Part shown: positions 629 to 36,106 of the stretch, piece after piece
How the letters are laid out: each line of letters starts with the position of its first letter
Position numbering within the stretch: the stretch's first letter is position 1
Position numbers and translations under genes: made by a program
The notes under the pieces: generated by a model
Database searches by the model: none
The model's input: only the letters and a program-made list of their open reading frames with translations
Told to the model about the DNA's origin: nothing
NCBI RefSeq assembly: GCF_000264995.1
Contig: NW_006767448.1
Span: 557,856 to 606,135 of the forward strand
Source: Punctularia strigosozonata HHB-11173 SS5
Taxonomy: Eukaryota; Basidiomycota; Agaricomycetes; Corticiales; Punctulariaceae
DNA: 48,280 bases
Direction: 5' to 3'

Positions 629-3600
629 ATGCAGACGATGGCAGCGTCGAGAGGGACGTTCGTGGTCGGCATCACGTACACCCCTGCCCGGTTCCGACAT
701 CTCCGGACACTAGACGCGTGGGTGCAGCACAACGCGATATGTGAGGACCTTGATGCGTTGGGCGGAATCCCGCACCCGCCTACGATGTCCGTCCGTCTCA
801 GCGAGGTCGGCGATGCGGGTGCGGCTTTGTTTTCGTGGTCGCTATCCGAGGTGCGTCTTGCTTCGCCCACTCCCACTATTCGACGACTTCTTAGCCCGTT
901 CTTCCTTTCTTCTTCAGACCATCGTGACGTCTGTCTGCCCGAAGATAGTCGGAGCAAGTAAGAACGTGATGTTGCAACGATCGATGTGAGTATATATAGC
1001 GCGTGCATGGCTTGAACGGCCCTCTATAACCCCTTTTTTCTGTGAAGAACCCGCATTCTATACCGGTGCGCCTCCGGATCACCCACCGTATTTACCAAGT
1101 GGGCTGACCAACACGCTTGCAGCATAGTGTCAAGTACGACCGACGTATTCTCGAGTCCTTACGGAACCACTGGGCATTCGATCAACGCTCACGTCTCCAA
1201 CATTCCCCCACCCCTCACATCGAAGGGAACGCGAGACGTCACTCAGACGAACTTCAACTCGTCCCACGGCACCCTGGAAACGTCCAGTGAGACTTCCACC
1301 CCCGGGCCTCAAGCGCCCAGGACCAGTGCAACCCCGGCCGAATGGGGAGCGCCGAACCACACGAAAACCTATGCTCCGTGCCAGGAAAGGCCCGATACTC
1401 AGTCCCCCGCGGATGGGCCGCGATCTCAGCGTGTCGCCGCTTTGTCACCTCCCATCCCGGTCACGACATCAAATCTTGCTCCAGCTTCGCCCTATTCGAC
1501 AGTGTCAGAAAGGTCGCCAGCGCTACCTGATCCAGTATCACGTTTGGAGCTGGTCGTAAGACAACCGCCGGCGGCATCCCTTTCGTCGCCTACTCCTGCT
1601 CCCTCGTCTTCTATTCCCACATCGCTTTCTATTCAAGATCGATCTTCAATATCCAAGACTTCGCCTGTGACGATTCACACGATCACAGCGCCGCATCTGA
1701 TCTGTGGTCCCTCGGAGCACGCGTTAAAGCCTCTGCCGCTGCGTCCCGCTCCTGTGGCTCCATGCGCCTCGGCCAAGCTAGGCATTACCACAAAGCCGGA
1801 GCCAGGGTTGTTGCTCTCTGAGGCGCAACCGTCCTCGAAGAGGGCCTCGCACGCACCCTCCATCCCTTGTTCTCCCCCAATCGCTTCGGCATCAACCGAC
1901 GAGTCATCGATCGGGCCCCATGAAGAATCGGGCAAAGGTTCCAAACCTGACGAGGGGATAGATGCGCCAGACCTTCAGCCGGTTGTGTCTACTGCAGAGG
2001 CTGGAACGGGGCTGCTTTCCAGATCCACCGCGACATCAAAAAAGGAGCGAGGACCGAACACGGCTTCGTACCCACTCGTCGATTTCTCGATGGCCATTCC
2101 AGACGATTCCCCGACAGCCCGAGTGCTGTCTCAGGCCTTATCAGGGGAAGTGGTAGACGACGCCACGGCATTTTCTGCCACCCCAGCGCACGCGTCGTCG
2201 CAACGGCCCGTTCTCGCCTTGGGTGTTACTTCCACTTCTTCGGACGATGTCACGTCAATTTCATCTATCCCCCCCTCTGATCCGCGGTCCGAAGCCAATT
2301 TGACGGGACATCTGATTATACCAGTCAGTCATGACGCTGCGACATCATCACTTACTTCTGCCCCATCATGCAATACGGGTGCTTTTACCAGCGAACCGGC
2401 GTCAGGACTTGATACCTGCACATCGACGATTGCTGCCCACGTTCCCACCACGGATCTCCGAGTCACTCAAGGTCCGTCCAGCAGTAGCAGCAGCAGGATT
2501 ATATCTTCTGCAACCCCGTTGTCGCTAGGGACTCCCATCACTCCAGCAAATGCTCACAGAACTTTGTCATCTCAGCACGACACATGTTCGGTTTTGCCGT
2601 TTGCCGCGGTTGCTCCCGCTGAGCCATCCCCTGAGCTCGTCGCCAGTCCCGCCGCGCCAAGCTCGACTGGTGCACATCGAGCATCGACTGATGCGACACC
2701 GGAACCCACAGCGCCTCTTCCTCGTAGCGATCATCGAATCGTAACTCACAGGCCGTCATCACTCCTAGGATGGGCAGAAGCCCGTTCCCACTCATCGTCC
2801 CCGCACCTTACAGCCGCGTCCCATTCTGTCGCGACACCCCATTCGGTCTCAGGCGCAGAGTCAGGGTCGACGCATTGCAGTGCGGCTGCAACCCCAGCCC
2901 CCACCCCCCCTACCCCGCTACCGCCCGCGGAGGGACCAAATGTGGGAACGGATCATGACGTGTCTAATAAGGAATCATCGTACGTGCCGGCCATGGACTC
3001 TTCGCCTGGTTCTCCTCCGGAAACTTCCCCGCCGACCCCATCAGATGGTATAGTGAACCAACGTTATGCTCCTGTCGAGAGTTTGCTGTTGCCCGCGAGG
3101 TTCGGAGACACCCCATCAATCACGTCGACGCTACCGGGACCCTTTCCCCTGCACGAATGTGGGACCGATTCTGGCACAACCTCACCACTTGTTCCCCGGG
3201 AACCTCCTGAGAAGCCTGGTTTCTCGAAACGCCCCTCTTCTGAGATCGGTGAGTTCGCTGTACATGAGTACCGGGCTATGGCGCTAATATCGAGGACGAT
3301 CTGTCATCAGCCGGCCCTTCCCCCTTTGAGGAAGGAGGAACCTCATCGGAGAGAGTGAACAAGCGCCGAAAGCTATCGCCATGCCCTGCCATCGACTTTC
3401 GGAAGCTTTTGCCTTCCCGAGCTGGGCGTGCGTCTATGCGTCTTCGGCGGGCGGGCAAGCCCCGAGTCCTTCTCAGAGGTGGAGCTGCATCGCGTTCCAC
3501 TCCATTCGATTCATCCGAAGATGGGAGTACTGCGATATCCGCTACTTCGGGGAAGCAAGCCAATGGAGAAATGATGGCACGACGTGGGGGTGCGCCGAAC

Positions 3601-4569
3601 GTTCATATGGACGTGGATGCAGGCGCGATACGTCACGTATTCGGACCTGATAATGTGGAGAGCGGCGATCGCGTTCAGGCGCTGATGGAGGAACACCGAG
3701 AACTGGTGCGCCGATGCGACGCGCTCCAGTCGGAAGTCATGACACACGAGACGCGTATGAAACAAGATCGGGAGAAGCTCGTACGCTCCGTGGCACTTTG
3801 CAAGTCCGTTACCTCGCAGCTCGGCTGCTCTCTCGCGCTTTGCGAGGACGTCTCCATCGGCCTCAAACGAGCCATGGTTGCCCTCGACCGAGAGGAACGA
3901 GAGCATGCGCGTACACGTGCGATACTCGCGCAAGCTGAGGAGCGGGCAGAACGCAAGCTAGCGCTCCAGGCCGAGGAACATCAGGCGCGCCACCAAGCAT
4001 GTGCAGCCGAACGTGTCTCAATCCTCAGCGTTGCCATGGAGGCGGTCGAAAACGCACGGTCTCTCCTGCCTGGGATCCTAGATGATACTCAGAAGCCATC
4101 ATCACTCGTGCTCGCGACGTCTGACATGTTTGGAGATGACGCGCTCGTCCTTGCGTCCAACTGTTTGAAGAACCAGATTCTGCGTGTCACAGACAATGAG
4201 ACGCGACAGCGTCAGACAATCGCAGATTTGCAGCAATCGTTACGGACCTCAGAGGCTGCAATGCTTGCCGAACAATCTGCTAAGGACGCTGCCCTGTCCG
4301 CCTCTCGAGAAGCCACGGTCCGCGCGGACGATGTCTCCGCAAGATGCGATGCTCTTGAGCGTGCTTTGCAGCACGAGATTCAGCGCCGTCGAGAAATCGA
4401 ACAAGCGCTGGAGAGAGAGAGTTGCATGCGGTTGCATTTGGAATCGAGCATGAACGACGTGACATCGGAGTGTTCCACGCCGTTCATCGTGCCTGCGCTA
4501 ATGCAGGCGTTTCTTGAGGTGTCAAAGATGACGAATGAAGCAACGCACGCAGGCTCCACAGAAACCTGA
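629..4569 (+). CDS. Family A member A1: N-terminal module, Ser/Pro/Thr-rich linker, coiled coil
   Basis: I do not recognise this protein. The model joins exons 629-850, 918-985, 1123-3248 and 3311-4569 (introns in phases 0, 2, 1) to give 1224 residues with no internal stop; the last intron has a GCTAAT branch point and a TCATCAG acceptor. Residues 1-97 form a module shared with A2-A4, with the patterns CEDLDALGGIPHP, LFSWSLSE and VCPKIVGASK. Residues 98-805 are low-complexity Ser/Pro/Thr/Ala and probably disordered. A basic NKRRKL motif follows at about 822-826, like a nuclear localisation signal. From about 920 to 1190 the sequence is heptad-like, rich in Glu, Arg, Ala and Leu, hence a likely coiled coil, and it ends in the tail STPFIVPALMQAF. 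A nuclear scaffold or regulator is possible, but that is inference. The start could also be the Met at 638. Confidence 0.82.
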
Positions 4570-7984: not shown

Positions 7985-10567
7985 TCATTTACGTGCTTTC
8001 TTGTCTGTTTTCTGGTGCTTCTTCTGGTGGTGAGTGTAGACCGCGTCCTCGTTGTGAAAGTACCTGCCACAGGTCTTGCACTGCGGCACAATACACATAT
8101 GCTGCAAACCGATGATATGACTGATCATGTGCGAGGTGTTCGAGGCTACGTAATCGCAAAAATCGCATTCAAGCTCCTTAGGCATCTTGTTGGCCGCGAA
8201 CTTCTTGTCGCCCTTCGCGCCGTACTTCTCGAGCACATGTTCTCGGATGTGATTCCTACTTTCCGTCCAGCCGGTGACGACGACCGTGCATCCCGCGTAG
8301 ATGCACTCGGCGCTGATGTCTTTACTGGGTCTGACGCAGTTCTGCATATCAAGTAAGATATCCGTCGCCGAGCTCGGCCATCCGGGCACGGACGGCGTAG
8401 ACGCGGTGCTTGACGAAGCCTCGCGTCCACTGGACGACTGAGAAGATTGATGCTGCTCAGACGGAACAGTTCTTGAAGATGAAGCGGATCGCGCGGGGCC
8501 GGACAATGCAGAGGAAGGCGTGCTCGCCGAATCCTCGCGCCTGTCGGGTAACCGGTGACGGGTCTGCTGCTTAGACGGGAAAGCTAACGATGAACCGCGA
8601 GAAGCGCGATCCGTCACGTTCGGCGCGCTGATCACCTCGAAACCATCGATATGAAAGACTCCGGGCTGCGGCTCCGGCGGGGAAGAACCGAAGAGTGAAG
8701 CGTGAGCATCATAGTCCGCCCCGATGGGAGAGTCCACCTCCATATCGCCGCCCAGATCGAGAGCCGCATACGGTTGCTCAGACAAGGAAGTGTCAAGACC
8801 ATGGCCCACCCCAATCGGGGCAATCACTTCAAAGGCATCGAAATTGAAGACTGCACCCTGCGGGGCAGACGAAGAAGAACCTGAAGATGGAGCATCAAGA
8901 CCCTGAGACGTCCCGTAGGACAAGTCAATTGAGAAACGATCGAAATCGGAAACCGAAGGTTGAAGATCAGGGACATCCGGGAAGATGTCCCGCCCGTGTT
9001 CCGCTTCCCAACCGTTGGGCAGATAAAAATTGGCAGGGGAAGACATGGACGACAAGTCCAAATCAGGGAACGAGGCGGCAAACGGATTGAGCGAGGCTTG
9101 TAAAGACGGCTCCGCACCTATTTGAGCGGCAGCGGTGGAGAAGAGATCTTCCTTCGAATCTCTTCCTATTTCCTCGAGTAGAGATCCTAAGGTCTCCTCC
9201 GACGCCGCTGTATCTGCAGAGTACCAAGGCTGTGCATTAAGCCATGAGAAGAGATCCGTGTACGGGTCGGCATCGTTTCCCTCTATAGGCCGCGTCCCTC
9301 CAGGTATCATCCCCGCAGTATTGGGAGATGAAGCCCCCTGAGGCGTCCGCGCCGTATCCTGTCCCTGCCAATCCTCATCAGCAAGGAACGAGAATGGATC
9401 CTCGTCTCGAATGGCAACAGGAACATCGGCAAGGGGTCCTGCGAGGGGCTGGGGCGCGGGTTGAACATCTAGAGACCGCTCGTACGCGTCGACTATGTCC
9501 TGCAAGCGTTGGATGTAGGCTTCGTCGACTGGTGCCGCGGGAGGCCACATCCTCAGACCGCGAATCGTTATCGCGGCGATAAGTGCAGCGCTCTCTGTCG
9601 GAGGAGAGGACGTGGATGGATCGGATGTCTGCTGCCTATGGCAGTGTTCAAGCAAATTTTGAAGCCATTGGATCGTATTGAACTGGTTCCCGGTCGACGG
9701 GTCAGTGAGGACCGTACGATCACCGATGGAGTGCCCGACCTGTGGCCCCGGAAGAGCCGAATGGTCAAGGGGATGTTCGTGCAAATCTGACGGCATATGA
9801 ATGTGATCGGAGTTCTGCGGATACGACGGAGTGCTGAGCACGGATAGCTCCGATGCACGGCTCTCATCAGCATGCACGAGCCCACTCGACGATGGGGCCA
9901 TTTCTATTCTATCCGTTGAATACGATGGAAGATACGAAACGGCCCGGCGTTCGTGCAGCCATCCCCCGACGGCGGACCCCGCGAGAGGCTTCATGGCCTG
10001 ATCTTCGGCGTTCGATACAAGCCACGGATGGTTAGAAGTATTCGAAAGGTCGATGAAGGGGTCGCGTAAGCCATCAGCATGGATGTCAGCAACGCCTCCG
10101 TTAGCCGCAGGCAGTGCAGGCATCCGGCTGCCGAAGTCTGGGTCAAGGCTCGCGGTTGGCTGCTGAGCGTAAAATCTGAAAGAAAATATGTCTGGAACAG
10201 ATCGTAGAGATAAGCCATCATCATCGCGCACCCGTGAAGACCACTATCGCCGAGCTCTTCATGAGTCTGCGACCCTCCGAGGCGAGCTTGAGGATAGAGA
10301 GACGAACTGCGAAACGCGTCACGACGCGTTCGCGCGACGATAAAAGACAAGTTTACTCACCTCGACCCTATATCTAGGAGCTGCGACCCAACATCCGCAC
10401 CCGTAGATCCAATAACCGTGGATGTGCTAGATATCGAGGCCGGGGGTGGCTGTCGCCAAGGTTGATTACGAGGGGATATTTGGGATGTACAGTTTCTAGG
10501 AATGATATTAGAAGAGCGGGAGAGGGGGGTAAGGAGAGTAAAAAGATTCGTACTCTTGTCCGATCAT
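7985..10567 (-). CDS. Z2: C2H2-like zinc-finger protein, probable transcription factor
   Basis: Minus-strand exons 10567-10554, 10495-10361 and 10175-7985 join in phase (2, 2) to encode 779 residues. The first exon is only 14 nt (MIGQE), followed by a 58-bp intron with a TTCTAAT branch point. Most of the protein is acidic and rich in Ser, Pro and Asp, as in activation-domain-like or disordered regions. About residues 675-770 hold three finger-like motifs: CIYAGC...HIREH (C-x4-C), CDFCDY...HIIGLQH and CKTCGRYF...HHQKKH. The C-terminus is Lys-rich. The spacing departs from textbook C2H2, so DNA binding is likely but not certain. Z2 is the largest and probably intact member of family Z; Z1 is its decayed copy. 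The short first exon is the least certain part of the model. Confidence 0.75.
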
Positions 10568-10687
10568 GTCAAAGCAAACGCAAGTGTGGCGAGTGATAGT
10601 TAGTGATAGATAGAGTTTGTTATCGTCGCGTATAGTTGAGTGATAGATCTCTTAAAGGCGCGTCAAAGGCTCGAAAGAAGTTGTTTG

Positions 10688-10975
10688 AGTTGGAGGCTAG
10701 TGGAGGTTGCAGGTTAACAAGAGGTGAAAGCAAGTCGAAGGAGCGGCGCGCCAGGCGTACCTCGGTGGCCCGACCACGTTTTTCCGTTGCGACGGCCTTG
10801 CTAGCGACCATTCCTGCTCGAGATCGACCATCCTCGCAGAGATATACGACTTTCAGGGCAGTAGGAGATATTCCTGACGGCGTGGACGAACAGACAGAGG
10901 GAAGAAAGCACAACGCCGAGGGATCGCCGCCCCCACAGGCTCGAGAATGTTGCCGGTGATTGCCGATAATTGATA
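10688..10975 (-). repeat. Duplicated upstream flank (copy next to Z2)
   Basis: The partner of 6436-6700, lying just upstream of the Z2 start. It probably contains promoter and 5' UTR sequence. Minus-strand DNA between here and the ATG is pyrimidine-rich, as in many fungal 5' leaders. Confidence 0.6.
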
Positions 10976-11262
10976 TTGAGCGAGCCGAGGTGAGCGGCTC
11001 GCCGCACCTGTTCACAAAGGATTCAGACAGCTTAGTCAAGTCTAGCAATCTGTACGGTATCATTGTAGTGTATACGAGGGCTGCATACTATCGTAACCCC
11101 CGTTGGCCCTGGACTGCTGCCAGGCCGGAATGCGAAGGTCGCGTCGGTGACACGTGAGAGCTTTGTATATGCACGTGATGGCGACGCGTCAGCTTGGGCA
11201 AGAAGTTCAAGGGTCTATGGAGCCCCTTCGACGTACTGGATACAACATCCAGTCCATAACAC

Positions 11263-11599
11263 GTAAGGTAGGGCTCATGCAAACTGTAGGAGATCACATG
11301 CTCAAATCTGTGGCGTCCTGAGGGGGGTTGGCGCATCCCAGACAGCAACGCGACCAATCACAGCGCTGGATTTCATTGAGTTCCCACGATAAGGGGTGAC
11401 TACACACTTCATTACACATTTCTTAGCACCTTGGCCATGATTCGGTCAGCATAGAGTTCTAGGAAAACAGCCGGGCAAGATTCCCATGCATTTGGATTCC
11501 TGCAAAAATGTGTTATGTAGCCGGAATGAGACTGAGACGGCCGTATCCCCGCAAAAGTGGCCACGTGATCTCCCACAGTTTGCATGAGCCCTACCTTAC
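11263..11599. repeat. 38-bp inverted repeat pair, possible MITE remnant
   Basis: Arms at 11263-11300 and 11562-11599 are reverse complements with 36 of 38 bases matching; the core is 'gtaaggtagggctcatgcaa'. The roughly 260-bp interior has no coding capacity. I could not define a target-site duplication, so this may be a decayed nonautonomous DNA transposon or a simple inverted duplication. Confidence 0.65.
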
Positions 11600-13140
11600 T
11601 GGATTTGATCCATCCCCAGAAATATGTCTGTCAATATCGATGAGTCGGGTTATGTCGATACGGCAGTTTTTGCAGGTAGCAGGTCACTTGATAATCATCA
11701 TATGGGCTCATCAGTGAGAGCGTGTGCGATGTGGAAGAGCACATAAGAAAAGCCACCGGAACAACGACATCAGGCATGCTCCAACGAGTGACGAAGAAGG
11801 AACACGCACCATCGCCATTTCAGACGTTGATAGTCTCGCCCCGTAACATCTGTAGCACTCCGACCAGCTAAAGACACAAGCAAAAGGGTCGACTTGCAGG
11901 TCCATAAGGTATAGATATCTCGAAAGAGGATACCCAGGCTTGTCAGATCTCCCATGGCAATGTCAAAGTGGATGGGATAGCAAGCGGAGCGTAGTGATTG
12001 GACAAGACGGACTGCGAGAAATTATGTCCCAAAGGAGCTCAATCCAGCGGGAAGAAGCATAACGTCGAGCAGGACACTTTAATGAAGGTTCCAGCTGCCC
12101 GCTCCGTTACTCCAGTATGGGAAAACCGTAAGGGACAGAGGCGCCCGTACAGCGAGAGGGGGGGGGGAGAAAGGGTTGAAAAGAACTGTGTGAATGAAGT
12201 CGCGATGCCTCACGCCCTCAGGCCACACCGCTCGCAGGTTCCTATGAACCGCGTGAAAGGGCCACACGAAATAATATGTGGAGACATGAAATGGGACAGA
12301 GATATGATCGACTGACAAGGCGGGTTTTCAGCGTCGATATGCTGGCGAACCTGCTCGGAGCCAGAGTTTCGGAAGCACATCCGGCGGAGATGAAGAGACG
12401 AAGGCACCATAAGCAGGTGTAGTCGAGTTTGTACGAGATACTCGGCAAGCAATGAGCGTCCCAACTGGAAGAATGCAGGTTAGAATTTGTACGATGGTGC
12501 GGCGAGGTGGAGGAAGTCGACCATCGCTATAGCGCGACGCGTCTAGTTCAAGTCAAGAGAGTCTGAGACACCGTGAAGGATGAAGCGAGGATTCATCCAG
12601 CAAGTCATAGCTCCCGAACGCGGACCGCGATCGTGAGTGAGACAGGTGGACTCGGAGGCGGCATTTGGTCCCGACTGTCTCGTCTCAGTAAGTGACTGTA
12701 AGTCTCCTTACAGGTATATCGTCAATCCCGGGGGTGTTGGCGCCCAGCCGCCGTCAGCATATGGATGCACCATAGCACAACGTTTGTACGCCATGGAGAT
12801 GCACAGTTTATCTTCCGTGGGCCCGTGGACCGTGGCTATTTGGGCTCTTGTCGTCGTCGTCCGAAGAGAAAAAACTCCGGCGATCTCTCGTCCGCACCGC
12901 TTACTACATAATCCTCAGTACTAAATTTAGCTCTGGCTGTGCGCTCCTGCGGGTAAAATTTGCGTTCGATTGCTGAAGTTTGAGGTATTACAGACACAAC
13001 AGCGAGAAGATTGCTGCAGTGAAATGTACAGGGGGAAGATAAGGTACATGATTTGAGTACATTCATTAGCAGGAATAAGAGAAAGATAGATAAGGACCGA
13101 CGACAGGAAGCAAATACCCAAGACCGTGGCTGAGGGCATA

Positions 13141-13497
13141 CTATATGACACCTTCACTTCGTCAACCCCGTCGAATCGTCAGTCACAGGCCGGTCACATT
13201 GATAGCCGACTTCGTTATCAAGCACTTTGGTGCTTCGAATCTGACTGGCCTTACAACACCCGTTGATCAATGAATACCTTCTTTAAACTCCGCTCGGCTA
13301 ACCATCACGCAGCGTTACAATGCACACAGTCCTCCTCCTCGTTATTGGAGACTTTCTGGTGAATAAAAACCTGTGCAATACACTTGGATACATTCATAAA
13401 TGACTCAGTCAAATTCTGAGACCAAACCGTGCAGCGGTTACTGAGATGTAGCAAAGTGACGATTCGACGGGGTTGACGAAGTGAAGGTGTCATATAG
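13141..13497. mobile_element. MITE-like element with perfect 41-bp terminal inverted repeats
   Basis: The arms 13141-13181 and 13457-13497 are perfect reverse complements over 41 bases, starting CTATATGACACC. The element is 357 bp long and is flanked on both sides by TA (13139-13140 and 13498-13499), which fits a Tc1/mariner-type TA target duplication. It has no ORF of its own. The perfect arms suggest recent insertion or homogenisation. Confidence 0.82.
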
Positions 13498-13742
13498 TAA
13501 CGCAACATGTAGGCACGAGCGTTGCGATGAGCGGTCGAGAGGTGTTGTACGAAGAAAATGGTCCAGAAAAGGAGCGTGCGGATGGTGGATAATTTAAGGA
13601 GCGACGAGGACGGGCAAGATATGCATAAGCGCCGTCGAGCACGGTCAGTAGATAGTGGTCAAGTGATATCCTGTATGTTAATGATTGAAATTTGAACGTG
13701 GGCGCAGCGCGCTTAGCGCCGTGTATTCACCTGAACGGTTGT

Positions 13743-18035: not shown

Positions 18036-18079
18036 GCACAGAACGAGACTAGTGGCCAACCGTCGCATTCAATTTCGCA

Positions 18080-20792: not shown

Positions 20793-21907
20793 GTCTTCGC
20801 TCTACTGTATAGGATACGAAGGTTTTGGGATGTATGTTTGAGATGTGAGTGGGGGGATGAGAGTGGATTGGGAGAGAAGCTGAAACAAAGATGATACCGA
20901 GCGGTGAGCATACGACAACCGGGAGAGCGTGCAATTTATACCAGATGGAACGCCATAACTCGCAAGTGTCTTTCGCTATCGCACGAAGACAAAAGACAGA
21001 AATCTCTTTGACGTTGCAAAGCAAAGGCAAAGATGGGTGCATTGTAGCTGTGACCACATCGCCTACACCGTGTCAAAGATCCGAGGCGAACGTCCGGGCA
21101 TAGAGCCATGTTGGAAGGCGAACGTCCTTCGTGGATCGACGAATACATGACGAAGGTTGGAACGCGATGATTGTTATTTGAGAGACGGGCAACCCTATAG
21201 CTCCAGTCCTGTACGGGGAAACGTTCAAGTCGATGGCGAGTCGTGCAGAGCCCGGGTGACCATGAGCCTCGAGGCATGCTAGCATGCGGAGTCAAAACTC
21301 CGCTAGCCGACCTTCCGTGCCGTCACTCAAAGAGGCGCCTTGTATTTGCGGCCATGACCAGCACCACGAGGTGCTCAGCCTCCGTGGCCAGAAGAACACT
21401 GATAACCAACCGTCAGCCAGAGGAACATGATTCCCTGGAATGGCGACGTACATGCATATCTGGAGCAAAAAACGCCCGTTTTCTCGTAGAAAAGCATGCA
21501 GTTATGCCTGACACGGTCGATGAGCCAACGTCCATGAGTACGACGACGACCTTGTTCGCTTTCTGGACGAAATCAGCGCAGAGCGGAAGAGTCCGAGGAA
21601 GACGCACGGGGGAGCCGGCCGAAAAGATCTCAATCACGTGCAACTCGCATGGCAAAGTAGTCGAGAGGGGGGCTCAGGCAAGGGGTAGCATCATGATCGT
21701 CATTTAGGTGTTTGACATACACTTTACCTATGGCAAATGAGCGAAAACGACCAGCCATAGACATTAGGCAGGCCTTCTAGCATAACCGACGCATAGTGTC
21801 CAAGGGAAAAAGAGCGTGTGCACGTCGAAGGTGAGTCATGTCCGTTGCATATTGTCCGTCGTCCGTCTACCCGAATCCGAATCCGAATCCGAGTCCTAGT
21901 GAACGCT
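20793..21907. other. Noncoding region between Z5 and Z6
   Basis: No supported gene. A small hairpin lies near 21278-21310 ('gcggagtcaaaactccgc' with GCTAGC on both sides). A (CCGAAT)n run at 21871-21893 is followed by the 3' flank of Z6. A 154-codon plus-strand frame (21243-21707) has no recognisable features. Confidence 0.45.
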
Positions 21908-23444
21908 TCATGTTCGATTAGCAAGATGATCTTCCAGATTTCCTTGCTTTTCAAGCGAATTCAGATGCCTAGTCAGTGCGTCCGGCCTCGCGTATGCCGC
22001 ATCGCATCCGGGACACACGATCTTCACGCCCATGTGGTCTGCGCGCATGAGATGGCGCATCAGGCTCTTCTTCGACGTGCCCTTGTACATGCACCCCTCG
22101 CGAGGACACAATAAGGGCGTCGTCTCCTGGTCTTCTCCCTCTTCCTCTTTGACCTTCGGTTGATGTTCTTCCTTCGCCAAGTCCGTGTCCATGGCCATCT
22201 CCCGATCTGGGCAGCTCTCCTTCTCTTCGTCCGATACGACTATGGGACGCGTCACGACCTTACCAGCAAGCAGGCTCTCCAAATGAATGTCCGTCTGTCT
22301 CCTGTTTGCCTCCCGTATCCTCGCGGCGCGCAACGTCTCCCGAGCTACGATGTGCTCCTCCAGATGCGCGCTCGCACTATCGTAGTCAGTGACGACGTGC
22401 GCGCAGCCCGGCCAACAGCACGGGTACACGCCCTTCTTCTGGATGTCTTGCGATCGCCAGTACTTTCCACCACGACTGGGAGTCTTATACGGATGACCCG
22501 CCTGGTGCCTCCGCGCCCGGCGCCTCGCCGCGACATCCGACTGTCGCGCGGAAAAGTTTGTGTCTACGGATGCAGCGTCGTCAAGCTCGTCAAGCTCGGA
22601 CTCTCCGTCGTCGTCTACATTAGGACGCGTAGGCTCCAGAGGATAAGGCAGCATTTTGATGGGCTTGCGCGACCGGGGCACGATATCTCGTGTATTGGGG
22701 AGGCTCTCTTCATGAAGCTGGAACGGTCGCATTGGTATATTTCGGTGAGATGATGATCCGCAGTCGCATACTCTGGTAATAGCAGACAGGGAAGGTGCAC
22801 TGAACGATCAGTGTCATTCGAATATACACCGACGGTCAGGAAGGGCGAACACATACTGGAATCTCTGGCCTTCATTCGCAACCGTACTAGGTTCTGTGAC
22901 AGGCTCGGGCGTGGATGCTGTCGACATCGAAGAGATTGACGATGATCGAGGTCGGGGATTAGAGACATCGGAGTCGGTGGTCGATCCAGACTGCATTATT
23001 GTTGACGACCGGGAGAGCGTCGACGACGATCGCGCTCTTACATCAGGTCTAGGCAGTGTAATCCTTGCAGACGGTCCTTGGACGGGAATGGGACCAGGCG
23101 GCTCGTACGGAACCAATGCATTCGGTTGCGGTTGCACCCCGAGAAGCGGCTTCACGCGTACTAACGTCTGTACCTCACATAGATGAGTGCCGCCGAGAAC
23201 GTGTCTCGCGAAACAGACGGTATTATTGTTTAACGCCTGCTCGCCCACATGGACAGGTCCGTGCGTGAACCTTCATAGGTGCGTGAGTAAGAAAAGAGGA
23301 TAGATTCCGCACTACGACGCACATTGGCTCAATTGTTCCTCTGGCAGGATCGCACATCATCTGCATATAGGTACCCTGTGCTTGGTGTGGACACATGCTT
23401 TGAGCATGATGCTGGTGTTGGTATTGATTTCGGGTGTTCGACAT
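21908..23444 (-). CDS. Z6: C2H2-like zinc-finger protein
   Basis: The minus-strand model has exons 23444-23323, 23204-22857 and 22772-21908, about 444 residues, with introns in phase 2. The second junction (TTCCA|gtatgt to ttaccag|A) is clear; the first is a best guess among several sites. The N-terminus is His/Gln/Met-rich, then comes a Ser/Pro-rich stretch (SSISSMSTASTPEP), an acidic patch ESELDELDD and a basic AARRRARR. Fingers: CCWPGCAHVV...HLEEH, CPREGCMYKG...HLMRADH and CPGCDAAYARPDALTRHL. The last two match those of Z3 and the first matches that of Z5, so Z6 links the whole group. A basic/acidic linker (KVKEEEGEDQE) lies between the fingers. It is a probable DNA- or RNA-binding nuclear protein. 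Confidence 0.75.
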
Positions 23445-24399: not shown

Positions 24400-25426
24400 A
24401 TGGAATGCCCTATGAATCTTGGCCTTCTCACCGTCAACGTTGCATACTCGCTCGAAAGATTTCAGGTGCTCAAGACTCTCGACGCCAAGGCGCGTCATGC
24501 CGCGGTCGTTTCGGACCTCAATGCCCTCGGACGGCTACCCAACCCCAAGGTTAAGTCCCTTCGTCTCTTCGAAGACAGGCACGGAGATGGAGGACAAGTG
24601 GTCTTCTACTGGCCTTTCTCGGAAGTGCGTGAATCCCGACAGTTCAAAGACGCTACGTCCAGCTTGACACCGTCGTACCTCAGGACCTGGCTCGTAACGT
24701 GTGCCCCAAAATTGTTGCAACAAGGAAGGAGGACCTGCAGAGCCGCTCGATGTACGTGCGCTCATTCAGCCTGCTTTGAACACTTTTTACCGGGTTCCGC
24801 ACCTGTTCAGAATATGCATAGCTTATAGGTACGTATGACGCACTGCTCGCCTATCCAAGCCATCAACTATCCCGCAGCATCGTGGATAGAACGGCCAACG
24901 CCCCTCCTACTCGATACGGATATTGTGGTCAATCTATCGATCTAAGGGGCTCAACCAGCTTCGTGCCTTTAGCCACGTCAGGCGCTAATCCGATACTCAT
25001 AGCCAATGTCAAACCAAAACCACCGGCTCCAGCCGCACAAACTCAAACGAGTGCACAGAAACCCGTGACCAACGTCAGAGCGAAGCCAGCAGCCCCGATC
25101 GTTCGTGCTCAACCAGGTGTACAAGCATCTAAGCCTGCGAATGTGGCGATCACGTCCAATGGTAGCGTTCATTCCTGTTGTTCCGATTTTGAATGCAGCG
25201 GGAGCTGAAATGTCCGCAAGTCGTTCGCCCAGGAGTCCGCCCTCGAAAAGATAACGATGGTGAATCGGACAGGCCTCTAAAGCGTCCCCGGATCCTTCGC
25301 CCGCCCACCGTTGACCCGCGCTGGCCCTTCGCTGTGGTCATGGCGGGTTTGGAAGTGACCGGCATGGTGGTGACGGGCGGCGACTTCCCGTCGAAGGAGA
25401 TCATAGAATCAGACGACGAAGATTGA
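24400..25426 (+). CDS. Family A member A2: short form without the coiled coil
   Basis: Exons 24400-24624, 24684-24751, 24878-25161 and 25221-25426 join with the same intron phases (0, 2, 1) as A1 and A4, giving 260 residues. Exon 2 is exactly 68 nt, as in A1 and A4. The module reads VSDLNALGRLPNPKVKSLRL, VFYWPFSE and NVCPKIVATRK, and exon 3 opens with IIVDRTANAPPTRYGYCGQS, comparable to FSSPYGTTGHS in A1. The linker is short and Ala/Lys/Pro-rich. After intron 3 comes the basic RPLKRPRIL, aligned with RPTKRRRIF of A4. The protein then ends in an acidic tail, EIIESDDED, with no coiled coil or FIVPAL tail. It may be a truncated paralog or a short natural form. The start could also be the Met at 24412. 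Confidence 0.75.
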
Positions 25427-25911: not shown

Positions 25912-28584
25912 ATGGACCTGTTACGGATCAACTACGCCCCTTCACCCCAGGAGCTCCCAAGCGCTCGACCCAAATCGCTCCACGGCACGATCTGCGCCGA
26001 TCTCGAAGCGCTCTGGCATATCTCGTACCTCGCAGCACGCGCGCTGCAACTTCGCCAACAGCATCCCATGGGCGGCGATGTCGTCTTCCCGTGGCTCGTT
26101 GAACATTCTCAACTATGGAGGTTCGCCAACCCAACGGCACCCTCACTCCACGCTTACACTGTTACAGGAAGCCTTTTCTCCACAACGTGTGCCCGCATGT
26201 CGCCGGTGCCGGCTCCTCCATGCTATCTCGGAGTTACATGTGAGATTCCAACTCCACCGGAAACTCACAGTTTCTCTCGAAAACGAGACCGAAAACGATT
26301 CGATTCCGCCTTGCGTTGACATGGATAAAGTAACCTCGTCATTCCTCACCGGTCAGTACGCCCCCATTCTTTGCTCCGTTCAACAGCGCATGAGAAAAGA
26401 GGAACAATGAAACGGGCAGCTGACGAACTTTTGCAACACCGACAGGATCTTTCCGAGCTCCCCCATCGACTTGCCGCCCCAGTTCGCCCTCTTTACCCCC
26501 AGCTCTCCCGACCGCATTCCTATCGTCGTTTGTTGGCACACATTCGGATAGGAGGCACACCGTGACGCGTCCGATGATGACCAAGGTCACGGCAGCTCTC
26601 GCGTCGACGGCGAAGACGGTGGCATTGACACCAACGTGGGAGATGTAGACACCGCCGACCACTGCAACGGGTGAGCGTGTACAAGGCGCGAGTTTTGCAT
26701 CAGGTGCAGTGACCAAGCCGGGCGGTGCTGCGAAGACTGCCAGGCCGTCGATGGTCGAGGAGGCGGCGAGGACGAGGACCCCGGGGTTAGAGGCAAGGAC
26801 AAGAGCCGCGGGGCACGTGAAGGCGACGACGCCTGAAGCAGCGCATCGATAATGGTTACGACGGGTGTTGATCCTGTACCGCAATCGGCAGCGGAAGCTA
26901 GAGTCAGCGTCCTGCTCCGTTCCACTTTGGTAGTTCTCGGGGTACCTCGCGCCTGATGGGTTGAAGAGCACCTTACGCATCTTCTGGGGCCGCACCATGA
27001 ACACCTTCATCAAGCGCAACCCCCCCCCCCCCCCCCCCCCNNNNNNNNNNNNNNNNNNNNNNNNNNNNNNNNNNNNNNNNNNNNNNNNNNNNNNNNNNNN
27101 NNNNNNNNNNNNNNNNNNNNNNNNNNNNNNNNNNNNNNNNNNNNNNNNNNNNNNNNNNNNNNNNNNNNNNNNNNNNNNNNNNNNNNNNNNNNNNNNNNNN
27201 NNNNNNNNNNNNNNNNNNNNNNNNNNNNNNNNNNNNNNNNNNNNNNNNNNNNNNNNNNNNNNNNNNNNNNNNNNNNNNNNNNNNNNNNNNNNNNNNNNNN
27301 NNNNNNNNNNNNNNNNNNNNNNNNNNNNNNNNNNNNNNNNNNNNNNNNNNNNNNNNNNNNNNNNNNNNNNNNNNNNNNNNNNNNNNNNNNNNNNNNNNNN
27401 NNNNNNNNNNNNNNNNNNNNNNNNNNNNNNNNNNNNNNNNNNNNNNNNNNNNNNNNNNNNNNNNNNNNNNNNNNNNNNNNNNNNNNNNNNNNNNNNNNNN
27501 NNNNNNNNNNNNNNNNNNNNNNNNNNNNNNNNNNNNNNACCCCCCCCCCCCCCCCCCCCCCCCTAATGGCACATTTGACGCTCTCTGCATCCTCAGCAAC
27601 TCGGGCGCTCTTGAGCGCACGTTAAGCGGCTTCGCCCTGTACTGCAGCCCAAAGCATCCTTGACGGTCCGAAGATTTTGATCCCTTACAGCTGCCGACAT
27701 AGCGCGAAAAACTGTTCGAAGGTCGTCCACCGGAAGAGCGCAGCCGACTCGGATCCGGACGCGGCGCAACAGCGACGACTGGGACCGGACATGGTCGATT
27801 CCGGGCCAGCCGAGAACAAGACACGCGCCCGAGACCAGGTTGAGGAGCAGCAGGCGCGCTCGGGGCACTTTCACCGGGAACTTGAGTGCGAACGTGCGGC
27901 TCACGCGCGGACGAGCGAGCGCACGGCCGCGCTCGGGCAAGCATCGAGCACAACTGTTCCGTCGCTATCGTCATCGTGAACGAGATCGGGCGCGTGCGGG
28001 AGGCGCTGCCGGCAACAGATCCTGATGCTGCTTCTGAGACGCCGTCAGATGAGCAGGCGCGGATTCGATCAAAAAGTCATCACCAGTCAACTCGATAGAG
28101 CCATCGCTGGTGGCTGATTCGAAGGAGCCGACGCCGAAGTAGGAGAGCGCCCAATCTAGCGAGAGCAGCACCGCTGGTCAAGCGGCTCGGCCCGATAGAG
28201 GTACACGCAGAGGCATGTTAGCGGGAGATGTTTGCCGAGCGGCGACGTGCAAAGGATGAGGCGGTACCGGAGCGGTCCGCGAAGGAAACTGAGATATCAA
28301 AAGTGCGTGGACGTTGGGTAGAAGTGGAAGATGCGCTGAGGGTCGAGCGTGAGATGTGGGCGGTGGAGGAGGCTCGGCGAATGAATGTAAAGCGCCGTTT
28401 TTGGTTCTGGCGATGCCGGGGACATTTCTTCAGCCTTCGAAGAGAACTTGAGAAGGCGATGAAAGCTGATGATGGCGTTGGCGCTGGTGCTCTATCATCG
28501 AACGACCGCTTTTTGGCGATTTATGAAACCGGAGAAGGAGATGGTTGCACTTTGACCGCTACTGCCATGGTCGACAATGGATGA
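25912..28584 (+). pseudogene. Family A member A3: degenerate copy interrupted by the assembly gap
   Basis: The first two exons look sound: 25912-26120, then 26168-26239, joined in phase 2. They keep the module signatures TICADLEALW, VVFPWL and NVCPHVAGAG. Exon 3 cannot be followed; the plus-strand frame meets stops, although Ala/Thr/Lys-rich sequence like the A2 linker is visible around 26580-26860. Past the gap, coiled-coil sequence returns: EQQARSGHFHRELECERAAH (about 27846-27905), then after a frame change IVNEIGRVREALPATDPD, which matches AVENARSLLPGILDD of A1. A further heptad-like segment, 28228-28380, starts FAERRRAKDEA. No FIVPAL tail is found. Frame changes and stops favour a pseudogene, but the 498-base gap and flanking low-quality sequence could hide errors, so this call is provisional. 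Confidence 0.6.
27020..27563. other. Assembly gap (498 N) with poly-C flanks
   Basis: N bases fill 27041-27538. A C homopolymer of about 21 bases precedes the gap and one of 24 follows it. Frames that cross it as poly-Pro or poly-Gly are artefacts. The gap falls inside A3. Confidence 0.97.
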
Positions 28585-29443: not shown

Positions 29444-32400
29444 ATGGTGGAAGGTGAAGAACAGTGTCTCCCGCAGCAATGTGAGGCTATTCGTCCTCTC
29501 GTGCTGTCCTCCTGAACTTCTTAACCCTGTATGCGCGTAGTGGCCTCGGGAGAACCGATGTTGCAAGAATTACCTCTGCAAACACCGGTCAATCTGTCGA
29601 GACTGATTACCTCGCGCGCATGCGAGTGTGCTACAGGTAGCACCACCTCCATTCGAGAGTGTACATTCACTAATTAGCGCTATCACGACAGATCCTCCTC
29701 CAGAACCCACGGGTCCCTTTGCAGAAGCTTTCCAGCTTCACGAACGTTTCCGTCAAAGCAGCGACCTGGAAGCAGCAAATCGATCAATCGAGATTTATCA
29801 GACCATTGCCACGCAATGTGCTACACAGCAGGGCTGCTCCGTTCATGATCAATGTCAAGGCGATCCTATTCCAGACATGGTGCATTTTCGCTGTAGAAGG
29901 TTCCACGTTCTCGCCCAGCTAGCCGGTGTCCTTCAAGATAAATTCCGGTACACCAACGATGACGATGATTTGAGCTCCGCTATAAAGAATGTTCAGGACG
30001 CCCTGGCTCAGTGTCTTGCAGAGGACGTTGCATGCCCCACGGTTCTTATGTTCTACGCAAATATTCTCGATTCACAGTCTTCCCGCACATTAAACCCTGA
30101 ATCCAGGGAGGTTGCAATATCTGTTTGTCGACATGCTGCCCTCGTGTCTACCCCGGATAATCCGTTGAGAACAAACATCATCGGCCTCCTTGGGTGGATA
30201 ACCCTGATGCGGTTTCGTGATGCTGGCAATCAGGTCTATTTAGAGGAGGCTCTGGATCTACAGCGATCGGCGGTGTCCATGGTTCTCCCATCGCAAGAAA
30301 ATGATAGGCACAAGTACCTGCGCTACTTGGGCTACACTCTGCTCCTTAGGTATCAGGCCACCAGAAATCCTGAAGATCTAGAACAATCCGTCTCAGCATC
30401 TGCGGAAGCATTCGAGCTCTGCCCAATTACCCACATTGAGCGGAGTGTTGTTGTCCGTCAAATGATGGACTCACTGCGCTTAAGGTGCTACAACTCTGGT
30501 AACATTGATGATATCAATCGAGCGATAGATATTGGACGAGATGCTCTCAAAGCTGCGTCCACAAACAGCAACATCGGAGATATACTCAGGGAAGCATTAG
30601 GTGGTATGCTCATTTTACGCCATCAAATCACTCTATCAGGGGGGGATGACATTGAAGAGGCCGTCCAACTTCTGAGGGTTACCTTCATGCGTTCTCTTTC
30701 CGGTTCGATGGATCAAGTAGCTCGGTCTGTACATCTCGCCATCTCTCTGCGTCTGCTCTTCCTTTGGGACGGTGACTTAGGCCACCTTGAGGAAGCCCTT
30801 GAGCTGAACCGTCAGGCGGCAGGCGTCTTACCTTACTCAGATATGAGGTGGTTTATCACAGCTCAAGAGTTAGCAGATTCATTGTCAGCGCGCTTCTCAG
30901 AGGTCGGAGATGCTTCAGATCTCGTGGAGGCACTCGAATGGGATCACCGTGCCATCGCAGCCATATCACCATCACATGCCAGTTACAGCAGTGTTGTCTT
31001 GAACACAATATCTCACCTATGCCTTCGATACGAAATCCATCACCGTCTGGAGGATCTGGAAGAGGCTGTGGTACTATCACAGGAACTGCTGGAAGTTTTG
31101 CCGGACGGTCACATCGATAAATTCGACACCGCGCGCCGACTAGCGAAGGCGCTCTTGCTGCGTGGACAACACAACAGCGATGCCTTGGACATCGAAAGAG
31201 CCGTCCATGAACTAGTATCATGGAGATACGAGCTCTCACAAACATCCGCCGCCCAAGACTGTCTTCGTATTATCACCACCTGCCATCTGATCAAATATCG
31301 TGGATCGAGAGATCCGAGCGAGATGGACCGAGCAATGGAAATGATGAAGGATGCTTCAAACATAACTCAACGTAGCCAGCGTGAGCGCTATCAAGGGATC
31401 ATCACTGCCGCGATGTTGCACATCGAACGAGGAACACGCTACCAGGATCTTTGCCTTGCCTTGAGTTATGTTCAGGATGCATTGGAGAATAACCATATTG
31501 ATGTGCGATCTCGACTCAAAGAATCTATCGCCATTCTGGATACCATCCGCGCGCAACATGGTGACATAATTGCCTCCGAACATCCGGTACCCACCCAGCT
31601 CCTTGCCATATATCGACAGACCATCAGCCTGCTGCCACGCACTGCGTTCCTGGGTCTCCACTTTCGATCCCGCTTGCAGTCTTTGCGATCAGCTCAGAGT
31701 GTAGCTCTTCATGGTGCATGCTACGCACTCAAGATGTCTCTTCCAGAGACAGCGATAGAGATTATTGAGCAAGGCCGTGCGGTGTTTTGGACGCATCTCT
31801 CGCGGTTGCGATCTCCTTTCGACCCAGTTCCAGAGGGATTGCGTGACCGACTATCCTCACTAGCTAGACAACTGGAACGAGCAGAGAACAGTTCTCATAC
31901 CGACGACGCACTGGGTAGACGAGCCGCAGAAGCAGAGAGCGCACAGCGAAGGCGGCAGTGCGAAGAGTTCAACTCGCTTCTAGAGGAGATTCGTGGTATG
32001 TCGGGCCTTGAGCGTTTTCTCCTGCCGGATGAATACGCCGCGCTGGCAAGGGCCGCATACAAAGGACCTGTGATCGTTCTGATATCAAGCTCGCTTGGAT
32101 GCTATGCTGTGGTCATACGATCGCCCGGTAGTCCCATCAGCATCCCCCTCAGAAAAGTCGAAGATTCCTGGCTCGTGGAGTCAAGTTTCACGTGGCGTGT
32201 AGCGGTAGAAGATGTGAGGTCGATCTTGAGAGATCGTCTGAAGATCTCGAAAGTAGCTTCCCAGCGTCCAGTACCAGTTCGCGTGAACATCGTCGATATT
32301 CTGCGGAGCTTGTGGGAAAAGGTAGTCATCCCGGTCCTGACGGCCATAGGACTCAGGGTAATAATCATGCTCCATCACGTTGAAGGCAATGCTGACCGTA

Positions 32401-33331
32401 TAATATTCTAGCCGGCTACCGGCCGAAGGCGGCCCCGCGTATGGTGGTGCCCCACCGGGAATTTCTCGTGCCTTCCCATTCATGCTGCTGGCGCTGACGG
32501 AGCGAGGTGCTCCGACTATGTGGTCTCATCATATACACCCACTCTCGGAGTCCTCATTTCTGCCAGAGAAGCGGCCATGCCGAAGAAGCAGGAAATGCGT
32601 GCGCTCGTAGCCGCAGTACCGCGTTCGGATGCATCCCAGTGCAAAGACCTTCTATCAACACGTGACGAAGTCAGCTATATCCGAGACGCACTTCCGAAAG
32701 AGAGTCTCATACCTCTTCTGCCGGAAGACGATGCCTTGGTCGGGGATGGTGGCGGAATGAGTGCGAAGGGACTACTCGATAAGTTACCCAAAGCAACTAT
32801 CCTACACCTTGCGTGTCATGGCCAACAGAATTCGGATGATCCCCTGAAGAGCGGTTTCGTGATGCGCGATGAGATGTTGACGATTGAAAGGCTGGTGCCG
32901 GAGCCGCTCCCGAACGCGTTCTTAGGTTTCCTGAGCGCCTGCGAGACTGCAAAGGGGGATGAGGTGAGTGACAGACTCATCGGCTCGAATCGAAGTCTGA
33001 CCCTGCTCAGGAACAACCCGACCAGACGATTCATCTCGCAGCAACGTTGTTGTTCGCCGGCTTCAAAAGTGTAATTGCTACACTCTGGTGAGCGGTCGCT
33101 CGACTTGGCAACGAATAGAATACCACGCTTACTCCGTGTACACGCAGGTCCATGGAGGATATCGACGGACCACAGATCGCCAAGTCGGTATATCGTGACA
33201 TATTCAGTGGAGACTCGGAGTATATTGATCCGGACGATATCGCATATGCGCTTGATGGAGCGGTCCAAGAGCTGCGCGAGATTCATCCGGATCCGAGCCG
33301 ATGGGCTCCGTACATACATCTTGGGATATGA
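29444..33331 (+). CDS. TPR-CHAT protein (caspase-fold protease-like)
   Basis: Six exons, 29444-29480, 29541-29636, 29692-32357, 32412-32963, 33026-33087 and 33148-33331, join in phase to give 1198 residues. Most of the protein is tandem helical TPR-like repeats with the recurring pattern 'RYxxTRNPEDLEQSV' (RNPEDLEQ, GDASDLVEALE, HRLEDLEEAV). The C-terminal third is a CHAT domain: RPRVWWCPTG, the catalytic-type His in HLACHG (His1069), Cys in LSACETAKGDE (Cys1110), then LLFAGFKSVIATLW and a closing WAPYIHLGI. Both dyad residues are present. CHAT belongs to the caspase/separase clan; TPR-CHAT proteins are abundant in Agaricomycetes and are suspected of roles in cell death or immunity, but their substrates are mostly unknown. 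It lies between family A copies A3 and A4. The first two small exons are the least certain. Confidence 0.9.
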
Positions 33332-33647: not shown

Positions 33648-36106
33648 ATGAAGGGCAGCATCAAGCTGGTGGTAGCCATCGCGTACGCGCCTCCTCGGGC
33701 GCAGGTGCTCACGGCGCTGCACAAGGACGGCAAGCAGAGAAACTTGCATCAAGCATTGCGCTCAGACTTTCGGGCACTGGGAGGGATCCCACTTCCCAAG
33801 GCGAAGTCGATCGCGTTTGGGTTGCGCGACGAAATCGGGTTCATCACATGTTCTTGGGCGTATAGCAAAGTTAGTGATGCTCGCGCTGTCCGCGAGTAAA
33901 AACTTATTGATGCCATGACTCCAGCAAACGGCGGACAATATCTGTTTCAAGATCGTCGAGGCCAAACAGGACGTGATGGTTGATCTGTGCATGTACGTCC
34001 ATCTCACGGTTCGGGCAAGAACGGCTAAAAACCGTTCATCTCCAGAGTGACTATCGCTTATCGGTACGTCCTCGTTTGTATTTCGTTCATTATGCCACCA
34101 ACACGTTACAGCCTAGTGGTCAGCGGCAAGGTGGAGATGCCTGAAAGCGCGTTCGGCACTCATGGCCAAACGATCAATTCCCGCCTCCCTTACCGCGTCG
34201 ACCTCACAGGTCTGACAGAAATGATGGAGATTGCGCCGCCAGCTGTCACTTATACCATCACCACGCGTTCGCCCACCACTAGTCGTTCTAAGGTCGAAAT
34301 CCAAGCCCCAACGCCCACGAAATCGGCGTTCTCTGCGGAACGCACGAGCCTCCCTACAGCACCTTCAACGGCAGCAACGGTTGCAGAGTCGGAATATCGT
34401 GAACCCCTAGGAACGCTCAGAGAACGACCCATCATCGTAGAGGACGAAACTCCAACATTTACCACACGGTATACGCCCCTCGCGACACTCTCGTCTAGCA
34501 AAGTCGCAACAGGAGCTAACTCAATCCTACCGAACAAGGGCAATGTCAAAGGGCACCGGAGCGAGCCCGTACCTTCAGTCCATCCATTACCACCGAAACC
34601 GATGCCGAGGAGTGATAGCCCTTTACCCGACATCGCGACGGGAGATCTCGTCAACATATTCCATCACGTCCCTCCGCGACATGCCTCATGCGTTGGACGG
34701 CCCCAAGCGCAGGCAATCCCGGCTTCTGTTAATGGCGAGCCAAACGGCACTAGAGCTCACGACGCTCGTGAGTTTTTCTCCCGCTTCAGTCTACTTAAGT
34801 TCATACCGCTTTTGCAGTTATCCCTGGTAGTCATCATGTGACTACGCGTTCTCCGGACGATTCCGACCCATCCGGACGCCCGACGAAGCGGCGCCGGATC
34901 TTTACCGATGACCCTCCCCGGGCAGATCCATCCGACGGAACCAGGGATTTCGCCATGGTTCCTCCATTGACAAAGAAGCAAAAGCGGCGCCAGCAGAAGC
35001 AACTTCTGACGCAGCTGAACGCCCATCCCGTTATCTCGGTTGAGAAAGGTGATGGCAAAGGAGCGTCAGCCTCGTCGATCGAGAACCCAGATGTGACAAC
35101 ATACGTGGAGGAGCCGATGGCGGAGCCTGTTTCGGAGAAGGGATCGCGGGCCTCCTCGAACGAGGTGGATCGTATGGTTCTAGACGCTAGCCCCGCGCCG
35201 CCGGATCGCGATGAACCTTCGGAATGTGGTGGCGACGGCGATGGCGCACTTCGTGCCGAGCTAATGCGCCTCCAGGCTCAACTCGCCGCGCTCGAGGATC
35301 GCTGTACCGACCTCGAGGCTGAGTGCGCCGTGCTCGACACGGAGGCGCACGAGAAAGGAGAGCTCGCGGATCGCGGACAGGAGACGAAGCTGGATCAGGA
35401 TCACGCCCAGGAAGTCGCAGAAGATTTGAAGGCGGAGAAGCGGGCGCATGCGGAAACGCAGGACTTACTCGATCAGGCGGCACAATCCCAAGAGGCACTC
35501 GACGACGACATGGGTGAGATGGCAATGGCACTGCAGGAGCTCGGGAATGAGAACAACGCTCTCGTCCGCGTCCTCGAAGGCGCCGTCGAGCGGGCTCGTC
35601 GAATGGTTCCCGGTCAACCTGACGATTCGTCCCTGGAGAATCCGACAGGCGAGCAGAGTTCCCCGCGTTGGTGGTCGGGCCTCGTTTCTCGGTCCTTTGA
35701 CAGCCTGCAGGACCACCTACGAGACGTCAAAGACGCGCTAGCGCAGCGGGCTCGGGAGAACGAGGACCTGCTGCGGAGGCTGCGCGAGGCGGAGGCTGCT
35801 TTTGACGACGAGCTTCGCGCGAAGGAGACGGCGAGGACGGACGCTGAAGAGTCGGCGGGACATGCCAAAGAGAGCCTTTGGCGAATGGAGACGGCGGAAC
35901 GTGCACTGCAGCTCGAAAGCGTACGTCGCTTGGAAGCAGAAGCGGCGCTGCAGAAGGAGAGGGAGCGACGACTGCTGGCGGAGTCCAGCTTGGGCGACGT
36001 GATTGCCGAGTCTGCCTCCCCCTTCATTGTCCCCGCGTTGTTGGACGCTTTTCTGGACTTGACGCGGATGACCTCACAGGCGATGACCCAAGCCGGCGGA
36101 GGATGA
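33648..36106 (+). CDS. Family A member A4: N-terminal module, linker, nuclear-type basic motif, coiled coil
   Basis: Exons 33648-33869, 33925-33992, 34112-34767 and 34818-36106 join in phases 0, 2, 1 to give 744 residues. Exons 1 and 2 are 222 and 68 nt, the same lengths as in A1. The module reads RSDFRALGGIPLPKAKSIAF, CSWAYSK and NICFKIVEAKQDVM; exon 3 starts ILVVSGKVEMPESAFGTHGQ. The linker is about 210 residues, much shorter than in A1. After intron 3 comes GRPTKRRRIF (about 335-344), a likely nuclear signal. Residues about 457-707 are a Glu/Ala/Leu/Arg heptad-like coiled coil, broken in the middle by AVERARRMVPGQPDDSS, which matches AVENARSLLPGILDDTQ in A1. The C-terminus is SASPFIVPALLDAFLDLTRM. 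This is the cleanest full-length member of the family. Function unknown. Confidence 0.85.

What the first reader, a model, noticed from the sequence alone, without database searches (positions are those of the whole stretch)
629..36106. An apparently undescribed multi-copy gene family (A1-A4) defined by a two-exon N-terminal module
Four loci share a roughly 97-residue N-terminal module that I cannot assign to any known domain. Conserved elements are (D)L-x-ALG-x-(L/I)P-x-P-(K), (V/L)F-x-W-x-x-S(E/K), and N/S-V/I-C-P/F-K-I-V. Exon 1 is 222 nt in A1 and A4 and 225 in A2; exon 2 is 68 nt in A1, A2 and A4; intron phases are 0, 2, 1 in all three. A3 keeps the module but its exons are 209 and 72 nt with a phase-2 first intron. 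Protein sequence has diverged strongly while gene structure is fixed, as expected for an old but fast-evolving family.
Basis: partly seen in the sequence, partly recalled or inferred. Interest (0 to 1): 0.85.

Follow-up and report, generated by a model that had tools for sequence, protein, structure and literature searches.

The report
Clustered orphan fungal coiled-coil gene family
A wood-rotting fungus carries a small cluster of fast-changing genes of unknown function whose proteins share an unnamed folded head, a tiny easily missed exon and, in several copies, a coiled-coil tail; the family is real and apparently undescribed, but what it does is still inference.

Summary
Leave-one-out profile scores are 38-100 bits; shuffles reach at most 8.3. 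No Pfam family over cut-off, no PDB sequence under E 1 and no clear PDB fold was found. Four things change the picture. (1) At least seven loci: A5 about 28 kb upstream, distant A7 about 23 kb beyond the window, broken relic A6 on another contig. (2) More than the N-terminal module is shared: A1, A4 and A7 share a coiled-coil-like tail ending PF[IV]VPAL..AFL, A3 keeps a remnant; A1, A2 and A4 have a basic motif. (3) Reader and NCBI model missed an 18-nt, frame-neutral microexon (A1, A2, A4, A5, A7); with it A1, A2 and A4 share phases 0,2,2,1. (4) AlphaFold predicts a small beta-alpha-alpha-beta-beta-alpha module (last helix less sure); the microexon, absent from the models, looks strand-like. 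Best guess: nuclear oligomeric regulators with an N-terminal binding module. "Old" is unproven: other fungi could be searched only weakly.

The parts
629..850 (+). A1 exon 1 (222 nt), module N-terminal part
   Evidence: NCBI protein P0001 starts at its fourth codon
918..985 (+). A1 exon 2 (68 nt), last helix of the module
   Evidence: joined to exon 1 in P0001
1048..1065 (+). A1 microexon (18 nt, phase 2/2, peptide ITRILYR), skipped in the NCBI model
   Evidence: weak acceptor (GTGAAG)
1123..3248 (+). A1 exon 4, Ser/Pro-rich low-complexity linker (NCBI model removes a further intron inside it)
3311..4569 (+). A1 exon 5: basic motif NKRRK, coiled coil, C-terminal STPFIVPALMQAFLEVSKMT
24400..24624 (+). 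A2 exon 1 (225 nt)
24684..24751 (+). A2 exon 2 (68 nt)
24811..24828 (+). A2 microexon (18 nt, IICIAYS)
24878..25161 (+). A2 exon 4
25221..25425 (+). A2 exon 5, basic motif LKRPRI and WPFAVVMAGLEVTG tail shared with relic A6 (no coiled coil); acceptor chosen by me to keep the frame
   Evidence: 58% over 48 aa to A6, 63.9 bits
25912..26120 (+). A3 exon 1 (209 nt, phase 2)
   Evidence: E 0.08 from the A2 query, 1.6e-6 from the A5 query; not listed for the A1 and A4 queries
26168..26239 (+). A3 exon 2 (72 nt)
27041..27538 (.). Run of N downstream of the A3 module
28380..28457 (+). A3 C-terminal remnant NECKAPFLVLAMPGTFLQPSKRT, then stop
   Evidence: 46% over 26 aa to A1, E 0.07 in 3.7 kb; weak row of the C-terminal profile in the same place (E 0.09)
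33648..33869 (+). A4 exon 1 (222 nt)
33925..33992 (+). A4 exon 2 (68 nt)
34046..34063 (+). A4 microexon (18 nt, IVTIAYR); the following 48-nt intron is in frame without stop
34112..34767 (+). A4 exon 4, low-complexity linker
34818..36106 (+). A4 exon 5: basic motif TKRRRI, coiled-coil-like stretch, C-terminal ASPFIVPALLDAFLDLTRMT

Best explanation
A1-A7 are one lineage-restricted (or very fast-evolving) gene family of the white-rot fungus Punctularia strigosozonata, spread mainly by local duplication on contig C16, with one copy decayed elsewhere. Shown: shared N-terminal module, shared exon structure including an 18-nt microexon, and a shared C-terminal tail in A1, A4 and A7. Inferred mechanism: these are nuclear regulatory proteins. 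The N-terminal module is a small alpha/beta binding domain; a long disordered linker with a basic nuclear-import-like motif follows; the coiled coil and its PF[IV]VPAL..AFL helix pair copies as homo- or hetero-oligomers. A2, which has module and basic motif but no coiled coil, would be a natural competitor of the longer copies. The microexon, which can be skipped without changing frame, adds a strand-like peptide (I..[IML].Y[RS]) at the end of the module and so may complete or alter its binding face.
For: Paralogy: profile scores far above shuffles and genome searches. Microexon: intact splice sites in 5 of 7 loci with Tyr at the same place; chance of such an exon with Tyr 0.04-0.32% per gene in 5000 Markov sequences each, 2.3-8.3% if Tyr is not asked for; in the window 3 of 8 donors of the form AT|GT[AG]NGT have it, and these are A1, A2 and A4. 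Tail: (E 5e-9 for A1, 1.3e-8 for A7). Fold: P0001 module blocks of ten at mean pLDDT 71-91 for residues 1-70 and 56 for 71-80, helices 749-1046; exon 1 alone pLDDT 83.4, pTM 0.66. Basic motifs NKRRK, LKRPRI, TKRRRI in A1, A2, A4.
Against: No expression, localisation or interaction data. A7 has no basic motif of the tested pattern. Basic motifs in disordered regions are common. The strand reading of the microexon is by sequence pattern only; the models lack it. The Tyr criterion was chosen after seeing A2, A4, A5 and A7; the A1 acceptor is weak and was admitted only after loosening the pattern. NCBI's A1 model leaves the microexon out. A3 has no 18-nt exon. A2, A4, A5 and A7 gene models are mine alone.
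Confidence: 0.35

Rival explanations
1. The family is an ordinary, widespread Agaricomycete family that fast evolution hides from the searches used here; A7 would be the conserved parental gene and the cluster its local offspring.
For: A7 keeps exon phases 0,2,2 and the C-terminal motif while its module scores only 17 bits with the profile of the others. The homologue searches did not return this genome's A2, A4, A5 or A7, so misses elsewhere are to be expected.
Against: 1 of 295, 0 of 133 and 0 of 111 candidates reached E 10, the one being A1 itself; no Pfam family over cut-off.
Confidence: 0.4
2. The module is a degenerate type I KH domain that binds nucleic acid.
For: Predicted order beta-alpha-alpha-beta-beta-alpha equals the KH type I order (KH order recalled); several KH domains (hnRNP K, PCBP2, Nova, FMRP, MEX-3C) appear among the 50 rows shown for the exon-1 model.
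Confidence: 0.12
3. The module is a ferredoxin-like plait (beta-alpha-beta-beta-alpha-beta) whose last strand is the microexon.
For: Rows of the full-length search include several ferredoxin-like or plait proteins (HMG-CoA reductase small domain, MupZ, acetohydroxyacid synthase regulatory subunit, permuted S6; fold names partly recalled).
Confidence: 0.25
4. The cluster is a self/non-self recognition or mating-type-like locus under diversifying selection.
For: Clustered, strongly diverged copies with runs of N on both sides of the window, next to a gene with a CHAT domain and weak TPR match.
Against: No homeodomain motif in the window or in L015-L019 (L018 and L019 are all N, L015 mostly); the homeodomain pair lies on contig C1. 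No allele data.
Confidence: 0.07
5. Chance resemblance or gene-model artefact.
For: Short module, 21-41% identity between the six readable copies.
Against: and the NCBI protein.
Confidence: 0.01

Closest known systems
Uncharacterised lineage-specific (orphan) multigene families of fungi
   Same: Local cluster, strong sequence divergence, a decayed copy, no named domain
   Different: Unusually well kept exon pattern with an 18-nt frame-neutral microexon, and conserved parts at both ends of the protein
Microexon switch of Xlr2 in Trichoderma virens (PMC11121469, passages seen) and microexons of Phanerochaete P450 genes (PMC1184071, passages seen)
   Same: A very short exon missed by gene prediction; in Xlr2 it decides whether a domain is made
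   Different: Xlr2's is 20 nt (so not frame-neutral by length), in a zinc-cluster factor; here 18 nt and frame-neutral in an unnamed module; use here is not tested
Type I KH domain
   Same: Order of predicted helices and strands
   Different: No GxxG loop; structural scores no better than unrelated folds
Basidiomycete homeodomain mating-type proteins
   Same: Fast-evolving nuclear-type proteins in clusters (recalled)
   Different: No homeodomain motif; this genome's divergent pair is on another contig

Membership tests
Type I KH domain | beta-alpha-alpha-beta-beta-alpha order with KH sheet arrangement | tested here: inconclusive
Type I KH domain | GxxG loop between helices 1 and 2 | tested here: not met
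   No GxxG near that loop in A1, A2, A4, A5, A7; the only ones in the first 100 residues lie at 61 (A1), 62 (A2) and 88 (A7)
Ferredoxin-like plait | beta-alpha-beta-beta-alpha-beta with a four-stranded sheet | tested here: inconclusive
   Weak matches only; the strand-like microexon was not in any model
Homeodomain mating-type proteins | Homeodomain with WFxNxR-like helix | tested here: not met
   No such motif in six frames of the window, L016, L017 or the readable part of L015; Homeobox_KN matches at E 0.001 only on C1 (two), C2 and C11
Any Pfam-A family | Module or full protein above a curated cut-off | tested here: not met
   Modules A1-A5, P0001, A7, two A1 frames and two A4 frames: none over cut-off; weak rows for coiled-coil parts of A4 and A7 only; the A2 tail was not scanned
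Lineage-restricted multigene family | Several paralogues, mostly clustered | tested here: met
   Six loci on C16:529.6-630.6 kb and one on C17
Lineage-restricted multigene family | No homologue outside the lineage | tested here: inconclusive
   Three word-based searches found only A1 itself but did not return the other copies either
Nuclear oligomeric regulator (works like) | Nuclear import and coiled-coil association | not testable with these tools
   Only sequence hints

The most novel reading that the evidence does not exclude
A fungal protein family in which a frame-neutral 18-nt microexon, kept through deep divergence of the copies, supplies a sheet strand of the N-terminal module, so that splicing switches each family member between two module states; module, coiled coil and cluster together form an undescribed nuclear regulatory system.
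Probability: 0.12. Interest if true: 0.7.

Novelty: new member of a known kind. Interest (0 to 1): 0.4.

Why it matters
If the module is new, it is a small domain with a confident predicted core that profile libraries lack, with a built-in splicing choice. The finding also suggests that automatic gene models can miss a conserved exon in a family (shown for one NCBI model), and it gives concrete gene models (A1, A2, A4, A7 and the start of A5) for testing. As an orphan family in one wood-rotting fungus with unknown function, its wider weight depends on whether other fungi have it.

Tried and rejected
Profile search of the own genome with an alignment and a back-translated search of prokaryote contigs were not possible. 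The C5:1753.8 kb match (E 0.037) was dropped: by eye its surroundings show no other family feature and its locus L028 gave no row with either profile at E 5. Weak Pfam rows for coiled-coil parts (Herpes_BLRF2 E 0.009, baeRF_family8 E 0.011 and others, all under cut-off) were taken as coiled-coil noise. PDB sequence rows at E 1 and 1.1 were rejected; P0001 gave none at E 1. Foldseek against PDB gave no E under 0.001 for either model; in the second look at the whole protein most top rows are long helices; the viral library gave nothing at E under 0.001, best 0.037. Mating-type reading rejected. A first A2 model with another last acceptor had stops and was replaced. Papers: seven searches; listings and starts of abstracts seen, passages read in PMC11121469 and PMC1184071 only. 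'PUNSTDRAFT' occurs in 1 paper, on another topic by its title. So 'apparently undescribed' rests on these open-licence searches only; none searched for the module by motif or by a family name.
Full report
What the window is. The only database match to A1 is itself: P0001, NCBI hypothetical protein PUNSTDRAFT_138401 of Punctularia strigosozonata HHB-11173 SS5, 1055 aa. The window is contig C16:557856-606135 of a 33.57 Mb genome in 32 contigs. It begins directly after a run of N (read as N at C16:530162-535900, 535900-555700 and 556984-557855; 555701-556983 was not fetched) and is followed by another (606136-611959). No Rfam family reaches its gathering score.

The observation. The exon sizes given for A1, A2, A4 and A3 are right. 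Five modules (A1-A5) score 37.8-100.1 bits against profiles of the other four, with a best shuffle of 8.3 among 1000 each. Pairwise identities of the six readable modules are 21-41%.

More copies. Genome searches with the A1, A2, A5 and A4 modules gave A5 at C16:529.65 kb (E 3.6e-11 from A1, 4.9e-9 from A2, 1.8e-4 from A4) and a match on C17:290.5 kb (E 6e-5 to 6e-4 from A2, A5 and A1; not listed for A4). A5 runs into the N gap after its third exon. The C17 copy, A6, has an in-frame TAG and its reading frame changes between pieces; its tail is 58% identical over 48 aa to A2's, so it is a relic of an A2-like gene. The A4 C-terminus found A1 and a third gene, A7, at C16:629.1 kb on the minus strand. 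Upstream of it lies a diverged module with the same exon plan (204, 71, 18 nt; phases 0, 2, 2); it scores 17.0 bits with the five-module profile, with 0 of 2000 shuffles reaching it (1606 were reported, best 6.4). An A7 module search finds only itself. Profiles of exon 1 (six members) and of the C-terminus (three members) run over 3043 open frames of the window and seven fetched loci, not the whole genome, gave seven modules (A6, not a profile member, at E 3e-12) and three strong C-termini (A1, A4, A7); the next rows are E 0.41 for the module and, for the C-terminus, E 0.09 at the A3 remnant.

The microexon. After exon 2 in A2, A4, A5 and A7 there is an 18-nt exon with AG and GT flanks, encoding I..[IM].Y[RS]. 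Looking again in A1, with a looser acceptor, showed the same (1048-1065, ITRILYR). With it A1, A2 and A4 have five exons and phases 0,2,2,1; A7 has 0,2,2,0; A5 is cut after 0,2. Random sequences drawn from the same dinucleotide steps give such an exon with Tyr at that place in 0.04-0.32% of 5000 trials per gene, and without asking for Tyr in 2.3-8.3%. The rule was set after seeing four copies, so these numbers are a guide only. In the window, 3 of 8 donors of the form AT|GT[AG]NGT are followed by one: A1, A2, A4. A6 has an 18-nt stretch with Tyr in place (ICRIAY; 1 of 8 AG-led stretches listed) but no donor, and A3 has no 18-nt one, only a 21-nt candidate with His instead of Tyr.

The rest of the protein. 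A1 and A4 align over A4 residues 7-128 (63.2 bits) and over 225 residues of the C-terminal coiled coil (85.9 bits; coiled coils inflate such scores). The end, [STE]PF[IV]VPAL..AFL, is shared with A7. A3 has a decayed version at 28380-28457 (E 0.07, weak on its own). A2 and A6 lack the coiled coil as far as read. A basic motif (NKRRK, LKRPRI, TKRRRI) sits about 20 residues into the last exon of A1, A2 and A4; A7 has none of that pattern.

Reading. A real, apparently undescribed, locally duplicated family. Its function is inferred: basic motif, disorder and coiled coil point to a nuclear oligomeric regulator; the module is probably a binding domain; the microexon may add a strand. The claim 'old family' is not shown. 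The three homologue searches returned only A1 (1 of 295, 0 of 133, 0 of 111 candidates), and they did not return the other copies of this very genome, so they cannot exclude relatives in other fungi. Microexons as such are known in white-rot P450 genes and as a functional switch in Trichoderma (PMC1184071 and PMC11121469, passages).

Noticed in passing
window 7985-22732 (minus strand): A second clustered family: several genes ending in C2H2-like zinc fingers (for example 7985-10231, 13743-15071, 19156-19779, 21908-22732); Pfam hits are mostly under cut-off, the last passes zf-C2H2. By eye 13743-15071 and 17148-17914 look like close duplicates.
   Followed up: partly
window 29628-33330 (plus strand): A long frame with a weak TPR match (E 0.018, under cut-off) followed by a CHAT domain (E 6e-14), perhaps one TPR-CHAT gene.
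   Followed up: partly
C16:530162-557855 and C16:606136-611959: The window is framed by runs of N; the A-family cluster straddles both, and A5 is cut by the first (555701-556983 not read).
   Followed up: partly
window 37093-38320, 44794-45651, 46741-47679: A protein kinase-like gene (PK_Tyr_Ser-Thr 9e-9 on one frame) and two F-box/LRR-like genes (hits under cut-off).
   Followed up: no
C1:2496349-2497720: Likely homeodomain mating-type pair of this genome, two divergent Homeobox_KN matches.
   Followed up: no
window 26331-26351 (A3): A 21-nt candidate microexon with His in place of Tyr (INLVIPH), acceptor weak; unresolved.
   Followed up: partly
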